A stretch of 64,000 bases of DNA, taken from NCBI RefSeq assembly GCF_003112515.1, contig NZ_BEVZ01000004.1, forward strand, positions 682,001 through 746,000. Direction: 5' to 3'. Source of the stretch: Streptomyces fragilis (GTDB taxonomy: Bacteria > Actinomycetota > Actinomycetes > Streptomycetales > Streptomycetaceae). Every line of letters starts with the position of its first letter. Position 1 is the first letter of the stretch. Made by a program: the position numbers and the translations under genes. This document shows positions 54,629 to 59,622 of the stretch, in pieces. Below the pieces are notes generated by a model. That model made no database searches and was not told the origin of the DNA. It was given only the letters and a program-made list of their open reading frames with translations.

Positions 54629-55708
54629 TCACCGTCGTGCCGGCGTCCCAAGGCCCGTCGGCACGGGCGCGGGCACGGCCATGCCCTCGCCCTCACCGGG
54701 GAGACGGGCCTGGTCGGCCCGGGCCAGGCACTCCGGGCACCGTTCCGGATCCGACCCCCGGTAGCCGCGGTCACAGTCCTCGCAGTTGCGCAGCGGGTGC
54801 CGCTCCGGCAGCCGCTCGACGACGGCGGAGGGACGCCGGGGCAGCGGCGGGGGCAGATCGGCGTTCAGCCGGTACGCGACGAAAGCCGCAGGCCGCCGCA
54901 GCCCTTCCTCCGGGAGCCCCGTGAACAGGGCTCGCCGCACCTCCCCGCAGGTGACGTCACGCTCCAGCCAGGCCACCACCCCGGGCGTGAGGTGTTCGAT
55001 CTCGCCCGAGGAGAACCGGAGCTCGGACACGTAGGACCTCAGCCCGGTGAGCAGCTCGACGGCCCGTCGCACCAGGTCCGGTCGGGACAGCCACGGCTGC
55101 GGCACGGGCGGCAAGGGCTTGCGCTCCTTCGCACCGCATTGCCCGGGGGGCGGCACGGTCCGCGACTGCGCGGGCGCGGACGCGGGCTGCGGCTCGGCGG
55201 CACTCGGCCCCCAGACCGGCGGAGCCTCCGCCGTGCCGGTCGCGGCGACCCTCGCATCGGCGGTCGTGGCAGCCTCGACCGCCCGGGGACGGCGCGACGA
55301 CGCGGGCCGGTTCTCCCCCGCCCCCTCCTCGCGGACCTCCGCCCTCTCGCCGCGGGCCGCGGCCTCCGGGTTGTTGCAGAACACGGTCCGCGTGAGGATC
55401 CGGCCTCCCGCGCCACGGATCTTCTCCCGCCGCAGGTAGCCGTGCTCCACCAGCTCCCTCAACGCGGCAGCGATGCGCAGCGCGCCCTCGGGCCAGCGCT
55501 TGGCCAAGGTCTTGATGCCGATGGGCGAACCCGGTGGCAGCGACTGGATGTGCACCGCCAGCCCGACTGCCGTCAACGACAGCGACCGGTGCTGGGCGAC
55601 GTGATTGCCCACGACGGTGAACTGCTTGGCGTGCCGGTGGATCTCCTGCACCACGCCGCCGCACCGGGCGGCGTCAAGAACGCGCCCGCTAAGATGCCCT
55701 TTACCCAT
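54629..55708 (-). CDS. Winged-helix DNA-binding protein with C-terminal zinc motif
   Basis: A 359-residue protein of a type found in several copies in Streptomyces genomes. Residues 1-115 hold the conserved HAKQFTVVGNHVAQH and LSLTAVGLAVHIQSLPPG and a winged helix (IGIKTLAKRWPEGALRIAAAL, then RELVEHGYLRREKIRG). A Pro/Ala-rich linker leads to a helical part and a C-terminal CEDCDRGYRGSDPERCPEC zinc site. It is likely a DNA-binding regulator; its target is unknown. It lies between msrA and a predicted nuclease. Confidence 0.75.
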   Translation of the reverse strand: MGKGHLSGRVLDAARCGGVVQEIHRHAKQFTVVGNHVAQHRSLSLTAVGLAVHIQSLPPGSPIGIKTLAKRWPEGALRIAAALRELVEHGYLRREKIRGAGGRILTRTVFCNNPEAAARGERAEVREEGAGENRPASSRRPRAVEAATTADARVAATGTAEAPPVWGPSAAEPQPASAPAQSRTVPPPGQCGAKERKPLPPVPQPWLSRPDLVRRAVELLTGLRSYVSELRFSSGEIEHLTPGVVAWLERDVTCGEVRRALFTGLPEEGLRRPAAFVAYRLNADLPPPLPRRPSAVVERLPERHPLRNCEDCDRGYRGSDPERCPECLARADQARLPGEGEGMAVPAPVPTGLGTPARR

Positions 55709-56091
55709 CAGGAAGTTCGGCCTTCCTCGGTGGTCAGACCCTCGTCCGGGATTGCCGTCCCGGCGGGGGTCGTCTCATGTCTGCGGTTGTCTGAGCAGAG
55801 CGTAAGCCCGCGATCCACCCAACCCGGCTCCTGGGCGGGCATATTCACTCACCCGTGTGAGCACCGCGCCGGGCCTCGCCGCGCCGGGGAGGCGGGAGGG
55901 GCTTGGCAGGCCTTCTTTCCTCCCAGGTCTTTCGGTAGTTGGAGCATCCCGCACCACCAGAACCCAGCCACCCGGGTCCCGGTTACGTGCGTCCCAGGAG
56001 CGAGGGGGCGCGGAGGCTCCGGCCCGGCGACGGACCCGACGGGTCGTCAACTCGGGCGCAGCCGCAGCCAATGCACTTGTACGCTGCAAGC
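55709..56091. other. 383-bp gene-free stretch before the HNH gene
   Basis: This divergent intergenic stretch has no credible gene. It is lower in G+C than its flanks in parts (for example 55920-55945) and carries a TACGCT -10 box at 56080-56085, six bases before the HNH gene's ATG. No -35 box is convincing. A 6-bp hairpin CCGGGA / TCCCGG lies near 55750. Confidence 0.5.
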
Positions 56092-57069
56092 ATGAGTGGG
56101 GCGGGAGAGCAGGGACGCAGGGCCTGGTCGTTCCTGGTGGCCGGCGAAGCCCGGCAGTTCCAGGGCAACACCGGATACGACGACGTGCTGGAGGAGTCGT
56201 ACAGCTACGACTCGACGGTGGGCAACCACAAGCAGGTGGCCGCAGGTGATCTGGTGGTGGTCCGGGACGGACGGGCAGCCCTCGGGGTGGGTCACCTGGA
56301 GCGCGTGGACGTTCTGGGGCTCGGCGAGAAGGCGCGGCGGCGGTGCAGGAACCCGGACTGCCGGGACACCGGGTTCAAGGAGCGGAAGACCAAGCCCGTC
56401 TCGGAGCGATACCTGTGCAGCCGTTGCGGCTGGGTGTTCGAGGACCCTTGCATCGAACTCCTCGAGGTGACCAACTTCCGTGCCCACTACGGCGCCACGT
56501 GGCAAGCGCTCGAAGGTGGCCTCGGCAAGGACGAACTGGAGCCCCTGTACCTGCACCGGTCCAAGCAGCAGTCGATCCGGGAGATGGACCGGCATGCCAC
56601 GCTGGCGAAGCTGGCTGCGTACGGAATACGGCTCCCCTCCCCCAGCGAGGCAGCCGACCGCCGACGACACCCCGGTCGGCTCCCCGGTGGCCATCGCCGT
56701 GCCGAGGCAGCCGTGCGGCGCGGACAGGACGCCTTCCGGCAGGCGCTGATACGCGAGTACGGCATGATCTGCGCAGTCACCGGCCCCGCGCCGGCCGAGG
56801 CCCTCCAGGCCGCACACCTCCGCCCGTTCGCCGCACACGGGGTCCACCGGGTGGAGGAAGGGCTGATGCTGCGGGCCGACATACACAGCCTGCTCGACAA
56901 CGAACTCCTGGCCATAGGGCCCGATCTGAAGGTTCACGTCGCCCCGAACCTGCTGGGTTACGACGCGTATCGATCACTGCACGGCACGCAGGTGGACATC
57001 CCGGAGAACGCACCGTTGGACATGGAGATCGTCAGGCAGGCCTACGAGAAGGCCACTGCCACCTGGTGA
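56092..57069 (+). CDS. Predicted modification-dependent HNH nuclease
   Basis: A 325-residue predicted restriction enzyme. Residues 10-80 resemble a PUA/EVE-like reader fold (WSFLVAGEARQFQGN, NHKQVAAGDLVVVRDG, GVGHLERV). Residues 85-112 hold a CRNPDC...CSRC zinc site. Residues 224-275 hold an HNH domain (ICAVTG, LQAAHLRPFAAHG, EEGLMLRADIHSLLDNELL), with the His, Asn and His in place. This layout suggests a type IV nuclease that cuts DNA with modified bases; that is inference. The ATG may be leaderless. The gene uses several rare ATA codons and sits among accessory-looking genes, consistent with transfer. Confidence 0.75.
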   Translation: MSGAGEQGRRAWSFLVAGEARQFQGNTGYDDVLEESYSYDSTVGNHKQVAAGDLVVVRDGRAALGVGHLERVDVLGLGEKARRRCRNPDCRDTGFKERKTKPVSERYLCSRCGWVFEDPCIELLEVTNFRAHYGATWQALEGGLGKDELEPLYLHRSKQQSIREMDRHATLAKLAAYGIRLPSPSEAADRRRHPGRLPGGHRRAEAAVRRGQDAFRQALIREYGMICAVTGPAPAEALQAAHLRPFAAHGVHRVEEGLMLRADIHSLLDNELLAIGPDLKVHVAPNLLGYDAYRSLHGTQVDIPENAPLDMEIVRQAYEKATATW

Positions 57070-57075
57070 GCACCG

Positions 57076-57396
57076 TCACGTGCTCTGTGCGGCGTCGCCC
57101 CTCTTCGGCCTGTTGGTCCCAGAGCCCGAGTAGCCGCGTTCGATGTCCTGGACCGTGCCGCTGGACACCCCCAGCAGGGCGGCGATTCTCCGGTACGGCA
57201 CAGCCTGTGCGCGCAGGTCGAGCACGACCTGTCGCCGCATTCCCTTCAGCCGCCTGTTGCGTTCCGCTTGGTCCTTCAGCAGACGGCTGACCACCCTGGC
57301 CCGCGCCAAGGGATCGCTCATCCGCTCGACGGCGTCCAGTGCACTGAAGACGCGTTGCGCCTCCTCCTCGATCGCGTCGACCGAGTCCTCAGGCAT
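57076..57396 (-). CDS. Small HTH protein next to the nuclease
   Basis: A 106-residue protein. Residues 1-60 are helical and charged (AIEEEAQRVFSALDAVERM and RLLKDQAERNRRLKGM). Residues 62-90 form a helix-turn-helix like region 4 of sigma factors (RAQAVPYRRIAALLGVSSGT). GAAGGAA lies seven bases before the ATG; the long open frame upstream is not used. It converges on the HNH gene with a six-base gap, and its own upstream region contains a large palindrome, so it may repress itself and possibly neighbours. It could also be a recombination-directionality-type DNA-binding protein. Confidence 0.7.
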   Translation of the reverse strand: MPEDSVDAIEEEAQRVFSALDAVERMSDPLARARVVSRLLKDQAERNRRLKGMRRQVVLDLRAQAVPYRRIAALLGVSSGTVQDIERGYSGSGTNRPKRGDAAQST

Positions 57397-57425
57397 GCCG
57401 GTTCCTTCGTTCGGGCACGCCGCTT

Positions 57426-57459
57426 GAGCTGAGCGTAAGGGACCCCTTACGTTCAGCTC
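57426..57459. promoter_or_regulatory. Large palindrome upstream of the HTH gene
   Basis: GAGCTGAGCGTAAGG (57426-57440) and CCTTACGTTCAGCTC (57445-57459) are inverted copies with one mismatch around GACC, 29 bp before the HTH gene's ATG. The size, symmetry and place suit an operator for the HTH protein. Confidence 0.6.
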
Positions 57460-57528
57460 CGAGCAGCATGCGCGCTGCCTCGTCACAGCCCCGCTCGTGT
57501 GGACGCACTCCTCCGGGACTGCCAACAC

Positions 57529-57562
57529 CGCGGAGCCTGGTGGTCGCACACCAGGCTCCGCG
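57529..57562. other. 14-bp perfect hairpin in a divergent gap
   Basis: CGCGGAGCCTGGTG and CACCAGGCTCCGCG enclose GTCGCA. A terminator-like hairpin between two genes that point away from each other (starts 57396 and 57631) is unusual. It may be an operator, an attenuator of the plus-strand gene, or mark an unannotated transcript. Confidence 0.6.
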
Positions 57563-57630
57563 CAACCCCGGCTCACGTGGTCGCACACGCCGGCCGGGCT
57601 GCCAGTCCCTGCTACGAACAGGACCTGACC

Positions 57631-58038
57631 ATGGCGCATCTTCCCATCCCCAGCCCCGCCGAAGCGGCCGGGCGCACAAACCCGGGAGCCAGGCGCAGCA
57701 CCCCCGGCGCCCTCCCCCGCGAACGCGTCTCCGCCGTGCACGCGTGGACGCACGTCATGGCCGCGTTGTTGCTGGCCTCACGACCGGACGACGGCTTCGG
57801 CGAGGCCGACCGGGTCGAGCTGGCGCGGCAGTTGACGGGTGGGTGGCCCCCGTACCGTGAGCTGCTGCTCGCCCGGACGCCCGCGCTCGCCGCACCCACC
57901 ACCCGCGCCGCCTACGCGCGGCGGTTGCTGGCGCTGAAGGCCGGACGGCCGGGTGACCCTCCGGTCGCCCGGCCGGCGAGGCCCGCCGCCCGGATCCCCG
58001 GCCCGCGCGCCGAGGCCCGGCGGAACGGGCTCCTGTGA
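57631..58038 (+). CDS. Unrecognised small protein, first of a coupled pair
   Basis: A 135-residue basic protein I do not recognise. AGGAC lies seven bases before the ATG at 57631; the frame is open from 57499 but the extra part is not protein-like. The middle is helical (RERVSAVHAWTHVMAALLLAS, VELARQLTGGWPPYRELLL) and the C-terminus is Ala/Arg/Pro-rich. The stop overlaps the start of the next gene as GTGA, so the two are coupled. Confidence 0.55.
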   Translation: MAHLPIPSPAEAAGRTNPGARRSTPGALPRERVSAVHAWTHVMAALLLASRPDDGFGEADRVELARQLTGGWPPYRELLLARTPALAAPTTRAAYARRLLALKAGRPGDPPVARPARPAARIPGPRAEARRNGLL

Positions 58039-58556
58039 CGGCCCCCGCACGGCCCGGCGCCGCCGTCTCCGTCACCCTCACCGGCCCGCACGTCCGCGCA
58101 GCCCACCTGGCCCTCGCCGCCGAGACCCGGGCGCGTATGGCTGCGGCGGAGGCGGCCGCGGACGCCGCGGAACGGGCCCGGGCAGCGGTCGTGCGGGCGC
58201 GTTCCTCCGTCGCCGACCGCCTCACCGACTGGGCCGGCGGGCGCGCGAGACGTGAGCGCGCCGCGGTCCTCGCCCTGGTCGCGGAGGGCACGGTTCTTGA
58301 ACGGGCGGAGGTGCGGGACCTGTTCGTCGTCCAGGACCCGACGACGGGCACGGCCTCCTGCGACTGGGAGCGGCTGACCCGCTGGCTGTACTACCCCACC
58401 ATCAGCCGTGAGGACCGCGCGTTCCTGTACTGCGTGCTGTCCCTCGCCGGCCGTGCCCCCGTCGTCCTCGGCGCGCTCGTCCCGGAGCTGGGCAAGAGGC
58501 GCGCGGCCATCCTGCTGAGCGCCCTCGGCACCCTCGCCGGGACGTGCGGGACCTGA
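58035..58556 (+). CDS. Unrecognised coiled-coil protein, second of a coupled pair
   Basis: A 173-residue protein with a helical Ala/Arg-rich region (about 24-75, LALAAETRARMAAAEAAADA) likely to form a coiled coil, and a C-terminal helical part (LYYPTISREDRAFLYCVLSL). It begins with the GTG overlapping the upstream stop. It is not a family I can name. The two genes lie between the HTH gene and a zinc-containing unknown, so they belong to the same accessory stretch. Confidence 0.55.
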   Translation: MTAPARPGAAVSVTLTGPHVRAAHLALAAETRARMAAAEAAADAAERARAAVVRARSSVADRLTDWAGGRARRERAAVLALVAEGTVLERAEVRDLFVVQDPTTGTASCDWERLTRWLYYPTISREDRAFLYCVLSLAGRAPVVLGALVPELGKRRAAILLSALGTLAGTCGT

Positions 58557-58572
58557 CGGCAGCGGCCCGGGC

Positions 58573-59622
58573 TCAGCTGTGGCGCAGTGCCTCGCGGTAC
58601 TCCCGCAGCCGGGGAGTGCGGACGGCGGGGAGACGGGCCAGGGTGTCGCGGAAGGCGCCGCCGTGTGCCCTCAGCGGCCACCGAGGGAGCGGTGGCAGCG
58701 GGTAGTCGTCGCGCAGGACGCCCGGCGGGAGGACCCCGCTCGCGGGGAGCGGCGAGGTCTCCCCCGGGAGGGCGAGGTAGGCCCAGACACCGCTGTCCAG
58801 CGGCACCACGGGCCCCTCGTCCCCCGGCGCCCGCCAGGGCTCGCCCGTGAGCGGGTGCCGAGGGACGAGGAGGACGTCGGGACGGGGCTGCGGCATGCCG
58901 GTCCCCGGTCCGGCCAGGCCGACGGAACGGGGAGCCGGCCCGGCCGGGAGGTGCTGGCCGACGGCGTGGTCCAGCAGGTCGGCGACGGGGCCGGCGGGAA
59001 GGGTCACCGGGCGGGCCTCGGTGACCGCCATGAGGTGGGCGAGGGCGACCCCGACCGCCGCCTCCCAGCGGCGGCTCCACGATCCGTCGGGTTCGACGGG
59101 CGGGACGCGGTGCTCGGCATGCAGCAGGTCGTCCCAGCCTGGAGGCGGCACGGCCGGTGATCCCGGCGCGGGGCGGCGGACGACCGCGTCGGGCTCCAGC
59201 CACACCGTCTGCCACATCCCGCAGTCGTCCTCGCGGGTCGCCACGGCACGCCCGCACCCCTCGCACGCCAGGTTGGGCCCGGTCCGGCCGTCCACGCCCC
59301 GGCAGTAGCCGTCGCACTTCTCGGGGATCAACCGCATGCCCCGGGAGTCGCCGGGGGCGATGACGACCCTGTTCCGCGCACCGAAGGAGAGCGAGCACAC
59401 CGGCGCGTACACGCCCTGCCGGGCGGCCTCCTCCTCCCCGACCTCCTCCCACCGTCGCCAGGGCGTCCCCGTGGGCCGCGGGTCGACGGCGTAGGTCGCG
59501 GAATCCATCAGCGGGGGATGGAGTTCCTCCCATGCCCCGCAATAGGTGTGCACGGGGAGGGCGGCCCGGGACACCGGCGCCGTCAGCTCCGCGCCGCACC
59601 CGGCGCACACGAACACGTCCAA
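58573..59622 (-). CDS. Streptomyces protein with CxxC motifs, unknown role
   Basis: A 349-residue protein. The TTG at 59622 follows GAGGGAG at five bases and begins the conserved MDVFVCAGCGAELTAPVSR start, with a CAGC pair. Further Cys clusters are EKCDGYCRG and LACEGCGRA, all probably zinc-binding, followed by Gly/Pro-rich sequence (VAHLMAVTEARPVTLP) and a WxxxLPGETSPLP stretch. I recall similar hypothetical proteins in many Streptomyces genomes, but no function. The frame upstream of 59622 is not protein-like. Confidence 0.65.
   Translation of the reverse strand: MDVFVCAGCGAELTAPVSRAALPVHTYCGAWEELHPPLMDSATYAVDPRPTGTPWRRWEEVGEEEAARQGVYAPVCSLSFGARNRVVIAPGDSRGMRLIPEKCDGYCRGVDGRTGPNLACEGCGRAVATREDDCGMWQTVWLEPDAVVRRPAPGSPAVPPPGWDDLLHAEHRVPPVEPDGSWSRRWEAAVGVALAHLMAVTEARPVTLPAGPVADLLDHAVGQHLPAGPAPRSVGLAGPGTGMPQPRPDVLLVPRHPLTGEPWRAPGDEGPVVPLDSGVWAYLALPGETSPLPASGVLPPGVLRDDYPLPPLPRWPLRAHGGAFRDTLARLPAVRTPRLREYREALRHS

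What the first reader, a model, noticed from the sequence alone, without database searches (positions are those of the whole stretch)
54629..59622. Candidate defence island around a modification-reading HNH nuclease
The nuclease combines a PUA/EVE-like reader, a zinc site and an HNH domain. It is flanked by a winged-helix protein, a small HTH protein and three unrecognised genes, one pair overlapping by GTGA. The nuclease uses rare ATA codons. Such features suggest an acquired restriction system against modified DNA, possibly with extra parts not yet described.
Basis: partly seen in the sequence, partly recalled or inferred. Interest (0 to 1): 0.6.

Follow-up and report, generated by a model that had tools for sequence, protein, structure and literature searches.

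The report
Stand-alone EVE-zinc-HNH restriction nuclease gene
One gene in this Streptomyces genome very probably makes a nuclease that checks DNA for an unusual chemical mark and cuts it; relatives sit beside known anti-phage systems again and again, but here the gene stands alone and its neighbours are unrelated.

Summary
The sequence features are real. The central gene (56092-57069, +) encodes a 325-aa protein. An AlphaFold model (pLDDT 89.7) shows an N-terminal EVE/YTH-type PUA domain with a four-cysteine zinc ribbon inserted in it, and a C-terminal HNH_2 nuclease. The best whole-chain structural match is the modification-dependent EVE-HNH nuclease VcaM4I; the nuclease half also matches TagI. 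Catalytic His242, His265 and Asp269 are invariant in 48 relatives. The family is patchy (own genome plus 6 of 90 sampled Streptomyces). Twenty-two of 57 genome loci lie within about 8 kb of DISARM, Mza or C5-methyltransferase genes, gained several times independently and hundreds of times above background. Others lie on plasmids, near integrases, or on a phage. So a type IV (modified-DNA) restriction role is likely; the mark read is unknown.

The 'defence island with extra parts' is not supported. None of the flanking genes recurs beside any of 57 relatives. The gene has its own conserved leaderless promoter. The winged-helix neighbour is the ordinary Streptomyces SCO4676-type gene with its scr4677 RNA. 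No other defence gene was found in the window. Verdict: a new variant of a known kind, without demonstrated activity.

The parts
56092..57069 (+). EVE-like/zinc-ribbon/HNH_2 nuclease gene, 325 aa; the finding proper
   Evidence: Pfam HNH_2 E=8.5e-10; AF2 model pLDDT 89.7, pTM 0.81; Foldseek to VcaM4I 6yex E=7.6e-8; 57 genome loci of relatives
56119..56526 (+). EVE/YTH-type PUA reader domain (residues about 10-145); invariant W12, Y29, Y37, D40, V43, N45, with W or Y at 39
   Evidence: VIA-align: EVE proteins 1wmm/2p5d/2hd9/1zce Z 8.8-9.1, DISARM DrmA 7s9w Z 9.8, YTH and THYN1 Z 7-8; conservation
56344..56427 (+). zinc ribbon inserted in the reader domain (C85, C90, C109, C112)
   Evidence: all four Cys invariant in 48 sequences; weak zinc-ribbon Pfam matches in up to 24 members
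56710..57066 (+). HNH_2 nuclease domain (residues 207-325), predicted catalytic H242, H265, D269; E256 in place of the moniker Asn
   Evidence: Pfam; TagI 6ghs Z 13.7 over 109 residues; profile match to VcaM4I E=4.4e-12 aligning H224/D250/D254 with H242/H265/D269 (VcaM4I residues from PMC7897488)
56080..56085 (+). conserved -10 element TACGCT, 6 nt before the ATG: leaderless promoter
   Evidence: a TANNNT hexamer lies at the matching place before the start in 15 of 15 close relatives
55709..55964 (-). scr4677 RNA element (Rfam RF02673), flanking, not part of the nuclease unit
   Evidence: cmscan 104 bits, gathering 41; the same element precedes homologues of the neighbour in 7 of 7 loci tested
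54629..55708 (-). SCO4676-type winged-helix/HTH protein, a common Streptomyces gene; flanking, not part of the unit
   Evidence: family in 51 of 90 relatives, several copies per genome; adjacent scr4677
57076..57396 (-). small HTH protein (HTH_23), convergent, 6 bp gap; flanking, not shared with relatives
   Evidence: Pfam E=7e-7; hits in 5 of 90 genomes, none beside an HNH relative
57631..58556 (+). two small unassigned genes (57631-58038, 58035-58556) overlapping by GTGA; flanking
   Evidence: no Pfam, NCBIfam, PADLOC or PHROG match; second gene in 2 of 90 genomes
58573..59622 (-). unassigned gene of a family common on Streptomyces plasmids and chromosomes; flanking
   Evidence: 24 of 90 relatives; 33 plasmid records; 83-84% DNA identity in other Streptomyces, where only this gene's part of the stretch matched

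Best explanation
The gene at 56092-57069 is a single-component, modification-dependent (type IV) restriction nuclease of the EVE-HNH kind. The likely sequence of events: the enzyme dimerises through its HNH domains; the EVE-like domain flips a modified base out of incoming DNA into an aromatic pocket (candidates W12, Y29, Y37, W/Y39); this frees the HNH domain, which cuts with one metal ion using H242, H265 and D269. The fold, the residues, the distribution and the promoter are computed here; DNA binding, base flipping, dimerisation and defence are inferred from VcaM4I and from gene neighbourhoods. The mark is unknown. It is unlikely to be 5mC in every context, because relatives lie beside C5-methyltransferases and the own genome encodes one; 5hmC-like marks, or 5mC only in certain sequence contexts, fit better. 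The gene is cargo by itself, with its own leaderless promoter; its neighbours here play no part.
For: Profile match to VcaM4I HNH at E=4.4e-12, catalytic residues aligned. Invariant catalytic, zinc and aromatic residues in 48 sequences. Distribution: own plus 6 of 90 Streptomyces. Context: DISARM in 8, Mza in about 10 and C5 methyltransferases in about 9 of 57 loci, 22 loci in all; expected about 0.02 for DrmA and for MzaC, observed 8 and 7 (background); control loci none. Tree: at least 6 changes for Mza, 4-5 for DISARM, 4 for C5 methyltransferase, so the association arose repeatedly. Plasmid copies beside restriction genes; phage copy; a relative fused to a ScoMcrA-type N-terminal domain. 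Stand-alone unit.
Against: No activity data. The EVE assignment rests on predicted structure: no EVE profile match by Pfam for this protein, and an HHalign trial against one EVE sequence was not significant. The HNH moniker Asn is Glu or Gly in 47 of 48 relatives, although in VcaM4I it is structural, not catalytic (PMC7897488). Cytosine methyltransferases near relatives and in the own genome argue against a broad 5mC reader. In this window there is no defence neighbour.
Confidence: 0.62

Rival explanations
1. It is the nuclease of a conventional restriction-modification pair: it cuts unmodified DNA, and a C5-methyltransferase (nearby in relatives, elsewhere in this genome) protects the host. 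The EVE-like domain would then sense absence of the mark.
For: C5 methyltransferases near about 9 of 57 relatives; R-M genes beside plasmid relatives; one HNH match is to a PADLOC model labelled type II restriction enzyme; the own genome has one C5 methyltransferase.
Against: No methyltransferase lies beside this gene or beside most close relatives; the neighbouring systems differ from locus to locus (DISARM, Mza, R-M, integrase), which fits an independent gene; some neighbouring C5 methyltransferases already have their own restriction enzyme.
Confidence: 0.14
2. The protein is an accessory part of Mza and DISARM systems (a nuclease that works only with them), and the copy in this window is an orphan with little or no function of its own.
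For: Mza and DISARM co-location far above background; a tight run of Mza loci in one clade, with the nuclease gene divergent from and close to MzaB in several; class 1 DrmA is reported to carry an EVE-like domain itself (PMC12458937; DrmA hit).
Against: The majority of loci, including 12 of 15 close relatives, have neither Mza nor DISARM within about 8 kb; gene, start and promoter are kept intact in stand-alone copies.
Confidence: 0.1
3. The reader recognises modified RNA, or the nuclease acts on RNA or in a cell-suicide response, rather than cutting incoming modified DNA.
For: The nearest reader folds include YTH and EVE domains that bind modified RNA.
Against: The nuclease half is of the DNA-cutting HNH_2 type, closest to TagI and VcaM4I, both DNA enzymes.
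Confidence: 0.07
4. One reading: a multi-gene acquired system in which the winged-helix, HTH and unassigned genes are extra parts.
For: Adjacency; lower GC3 in the nuclease and HTH genes.
Against: No neighbour is shared by any of 57 relatives; independent distributions; winged-helix gene plus scr4677 explained as a common Streptomyces module; independent leaderless promoter.
Confidence: 0.04

Closest known systems
VcaM4I (EVE-HNH modification-dependent nuclease; PDB 6YEX; PMC7897488)
   Same: N-terminal EVE-type domain, linker helix, C-terminal HNH; catalytic positions align; best whole-chain fold hit
TagI and Sco5333 (SRA-HNH)
   Same: HNH half, Z 13.7 over 109 residues; an actinobacterial type IV enzyme kind
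ScoMcrA (SBD-SRA-HNH; PDB 5ZMM)
   Same: HNH similarity; one family member (L096) carries a ScoMcrA-type N-terminal domain
   Different: NCBIfam phosphorothioate-restriction model only 27.8 bits against a cut-off of 180, HNH part only
DISARM class 1 DrmA N-terminal EVE-like domain (PMC12458937)
   Same: Reader fold, Z 9.8, 111 residues
   Different: DrmA is a helicase with no HNH; no detectable sequence relation to the DrmA copies next to this family
PHROG phrog_21425, Salmonella phage SEN8 gp02
   Same: Full-length relatives: phrog_21425 E=1.1e-27; SEN8 28% identity over 94%
   Different: Phage-borne; annotated as unknown or putative HNH

Membership tests
EVE-HNH modification-dependent restriction enzymes (VcaM4I kind) | N-terminal PUA-superfamily EVE-type domain | tested here: met
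   Predicted fold only: EVE proteins Z 8.8-9.1, VcaM4I whole chain Foldseek E=7.6e-8
EVE-HNH modification-dependent restriction enzymes (VcaM4I kind) | C-terminal HNH nuclease with catalytic His, metal-ligand His/Asp and Asp | tested here: met
   H242, H265, D269 invariant in 48, aligned with VcaM4I H224/D250/D254
EVE-HNH modification-dependent restriction enzymes (VcaM4I kind) | HNH moniker Asn (structural, not catalytic, per PMC7897488; not a defining feature of function) | tested here: not met
   E256 here; Gly 33, Glu 14, Asn 1 of 48; one reason to call it a variant
EVE-HNH modification-dependent restriction enzymes (VcaM4I kind) | Cuts DNA only when a base is modified | not testable with these tools
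   Needs purified protein or phage/plasmid assays
EVE-HNH modification-dependent restriction enzymes (VcaM4I kind) | Aromatic pocket that holds the flipped base (VcaM4I P24, W82, Y130) | tested here: inconclusive
   Invariant aromatics exist (W12, Y29, Y37, W/Y39) but no residue-level superposition was available
SRA-HNH (TagI kind) | SRA reader domain | tested here: inconclusive
   TagI aligned only over the nuclease half
ScoMcrA-type phosphorothioate-dependent nucleases | NCBIfam PT-DNA_restrict model above cut-off | tested here: not met
   27.8 bits, cut-off 180, residues 209-294 only
Type II restriction-modification | Cognate methyltransferase encoded next to the nuclease | tested here: not met
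   No methyltransferase or other PADLOC match in 31 further window ORFs or in the flanking genes by Pfam, NCBIfam or PHROGs; no shared neighbour in relatives
Defence island (several defence genes together) | Other defence genes in the surroundings | tested here: not met
   No PADLOC match at E<=1e-10 in 31 ORFs of the window; the two small unassigned genes none at E<=0.01. Some relatives do lie in islands
SCO4676/scr4677 module (for the winged-helix flank) | scr4677 RNA directly upstream of the HTH gene | tested here: met
   RF02673 at 55709-55964, 104 bits; same arrangement in 7 of 7 related loci

The most novel reading that the evidence does not exclude
This is an undescribed family of EVE-zinc-HNH sentinels that guard against phages which escape methyltransferase-based systems by modifying their DNA. 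It would then be a repeatedly recruited partner of DISARM and Mza, sharing its reader fold with the EVE-like domain of class 1 DrmA, and reading a mark other than the 5mC made by those systems.
Probability: 0.3. Interest if true: 0.6.

Novelty: new variant of a known kind. Interest (0 to 1): 0.4.

Why it matters
If right, Streptomyces and other actinobacteria carry a mobile one-gene restriction enzyme whose reader has a zinc ribbon built in, and which joins DISARM and Mza loci again and again. That makes testable which DNA mark it reads, and whether it covers the gap left by methylation-based defences. In practice it could be a barrier to bringing modified plasmid DNA into strains that carry it.

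Tried and rejected
Island of co-functional genes: rejected, no shared neighbour in 57 loci and separate distributions. Empty-site comparison at MsrA: no relative keeps the same genes downstream of MsrA in 18 genomes, so no clean insertion boundary could be drawn. Sister-species locus: 393 genus genomes searched with the 6.3-kb DNA; among the matches listed, pieces matched in different genomes and none held the whole locus. Phosphorothioate reader: HNH part only. Relatives in IMG/VR: none confirmed by tblastn. The paper of the architecture-guided MDRE screen (Lutz 2019) is not held, so prior description of this subfamily cannot be excluded. First family scans failed on a wrong frame.
Full report
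What is there. The window is part of a Streptomyces-type genome (G000, contig C4). Six open reading frames lie in 54629-59622 as described. The central one, 56092-57069 (+), encodes 325 aa with an HNH_2 domain (Pfam E=8.5e-10). Fifteen close relatives (56-60% identity) share a TANNNT hexamer (mostly TATGCT) at the matching place before the start codon. The window has TACGCT at 56080-56085, six bases before ATG 56092. This marks the true start and indicates a leaderless promoter of the gene's own. The gene uses ATA for 4 of 9 isoleucines and has GC3 0.84, unlike core genes around it.

What the protein is. A 48-member alignment (A2) gave a confident model (pLDDT 89.7, pTM 0.81). Foldseek ranks VcaM4I first (E=7.6e-8) and TagI next (2.6e-4). 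The second look by VIA-align splits this in two. Residues 207-325 match TagI (Z 13.7, rmsd 2.6, 109 residues). The N-terminal part matches EVE proteins (1wmm, 2p5d, 2hd9, 1zce; Z 8.8-9.1), the N-terminal region of DISARM DrmA (7s9w; Z 9.8, 111 residues), then YTH and THYN1 domains at Z 7-8. Z under 8 alone would mean little; the consistency of one superfamily at the top and the whole-chain VcaM4I hit carry the weight. A published analysis independently reports an EVE-like N-terminal domain in class 1 DrmA (PMC12458937). H242, H265 and D269 are invariant and align with VcaM4I H224, D250 and D254. The HNH moniker Asn, structural in VcaM4I, is Glu or Gly in 47 of 48 members.

Where relatives live. 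Full-length relatives occur in the own genome plus 6 of 90 sampled Streptomyces, in 57 genome loci across actinobacteria and one Lysobacter, on Rhodococcus and Paenarthrobacter plasmids and in Salmonella phage SEN8 between the portal gene and cos. Within about 8 kb of the nuclease gene, 22 of the 57 loci hold DISARM (DrmA in 8), Mza (about 10) or C5-methyltransferase genes (about 9), identified by Pfam and PADLOC representatives and home-made profiles. From 100 genomes (746 Mb) the expected number is about 0.02 each for DrmA and MzaC; 8 and 7 were seen, and 0.33 Mb of control loci had none. The Poisson figures ignore kinship, so a tree was built: the labels need at least 6 (Mza), 4-5 (DISARM) and 4 (C5 methyltransferase) changes, so the association arose repeatedly. 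Plasmid copies lie beside an annotated restriction endonuclease, a GIY-YIG nuclease, and C5 methyltransferase plus type II enzyme pairs. About nine loci also have a phage-type integrase nearby. One relative (L096, Lentzea) carries a ScoMcrA-type N-terminal domain.

What the neighbours are. Of the window ORFs, the nuclease (with its antisense shadows) is the one found in the relatives' loci; one unrelated ORF at 48 kb had a single 37% hit. The winged-helix gene belongs to a family found in 51 of 90 relatives, often several per genome. The gap between it and the nuclease contains the Rfam element scr4677 (55709-55964, minus strand, 104 bits), and the same element precedes its homologues in 7 of 7 loci. 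In S. coelicolor scr4677 lies between SCO4677 and SCO4676 (PMC3896431), so this neighbour is an SCO4676-type gene. In three related loci an ORF that looks like an SCO4677-type anti-sigma factor lies just upstream of the element (recognised by eye, not by a profile); here the nuclease gene lies there instead. The 58573-59622 gene is common on Streptomyces plasmids (33 records) and 83-84% identical at DNA level in other Streptomyces, where only this gene's part of the stretch matched. The small HTH and the GTGA-overlapping pair are rare and unassigned. Thirty-one further ORFs of the window gave no PADLOC match. MsrA is a widespread gene (89 of 121 genomes), but the window's genes downstream of it are absent there in all 18 relatives inspected.

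How it most likely works. By analogy with VcaM4I (PMC7897488): a dimer through HNH, a flipped modified base in the EVE pocket, relief of autoinhibition, one-metal cutting. Shown here: fold (predicted), residues, distribution, promoter, co-location. Inferred: all biochemistry. The mark is open. Relatives sit beside C5 methyltransferases and the own genome has one, so reading of all 5mC would be self-harming; 5hmC-type marks or context-limited 5mC fit better.

Verdict. The nuclease half of the finding stands as a probable type IV enzyme of a distinct zinc-containing EVE-HNH subfamily. The island half does not. Whether the subfamily has been described could not be settled, since the main screening paper is not held.

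Noticed in passing
window 55709-55964 (-): Rfam scr4677 sRNA element directly upstream of the SCO4676-type gene; the SCO4677-like anti-sigma ORF seen next to it in some relatives is absent here.
   Followed up: partly
L102, L114, L115, L085 (relatives of the nuclease): The nuclease gene lies divergent from and close to MzaB in several Mza loci, so it may be an unlisted Mza accessory.
   Followed up: partly
L096:7404-9029 (Lentzea sp. NBRC 105346): A relative with an N-terminal extension matching the ScoMcrA N-terminal domain (PDB 5zmm, E=1.2e-4).
   Followed up: partly
L138 (Salmonella phage SEN8, record 1183-2142): A P2-like phage carries a full-length relative between portal gene and cos, possibly an accessory-gene position.
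   Followed up: no
window 58573-59622 (-): Unassigned gene family with Cys-containing N-terminus, common on Streptomyces plasmids and highly conserved (83-84% DNA) across species.
   Followed up: partly
window 57631-58556 (+): GTGA-overlapping pair of unassigned genes; the second gene has two distant copies in G007, function unknown.
   Followed up: no
G000:C2:958457-959667: Single C5 cytosine methyltransferase locus in the own genome, relevant to which mark the nuclease must ignore.
   Followed up: no
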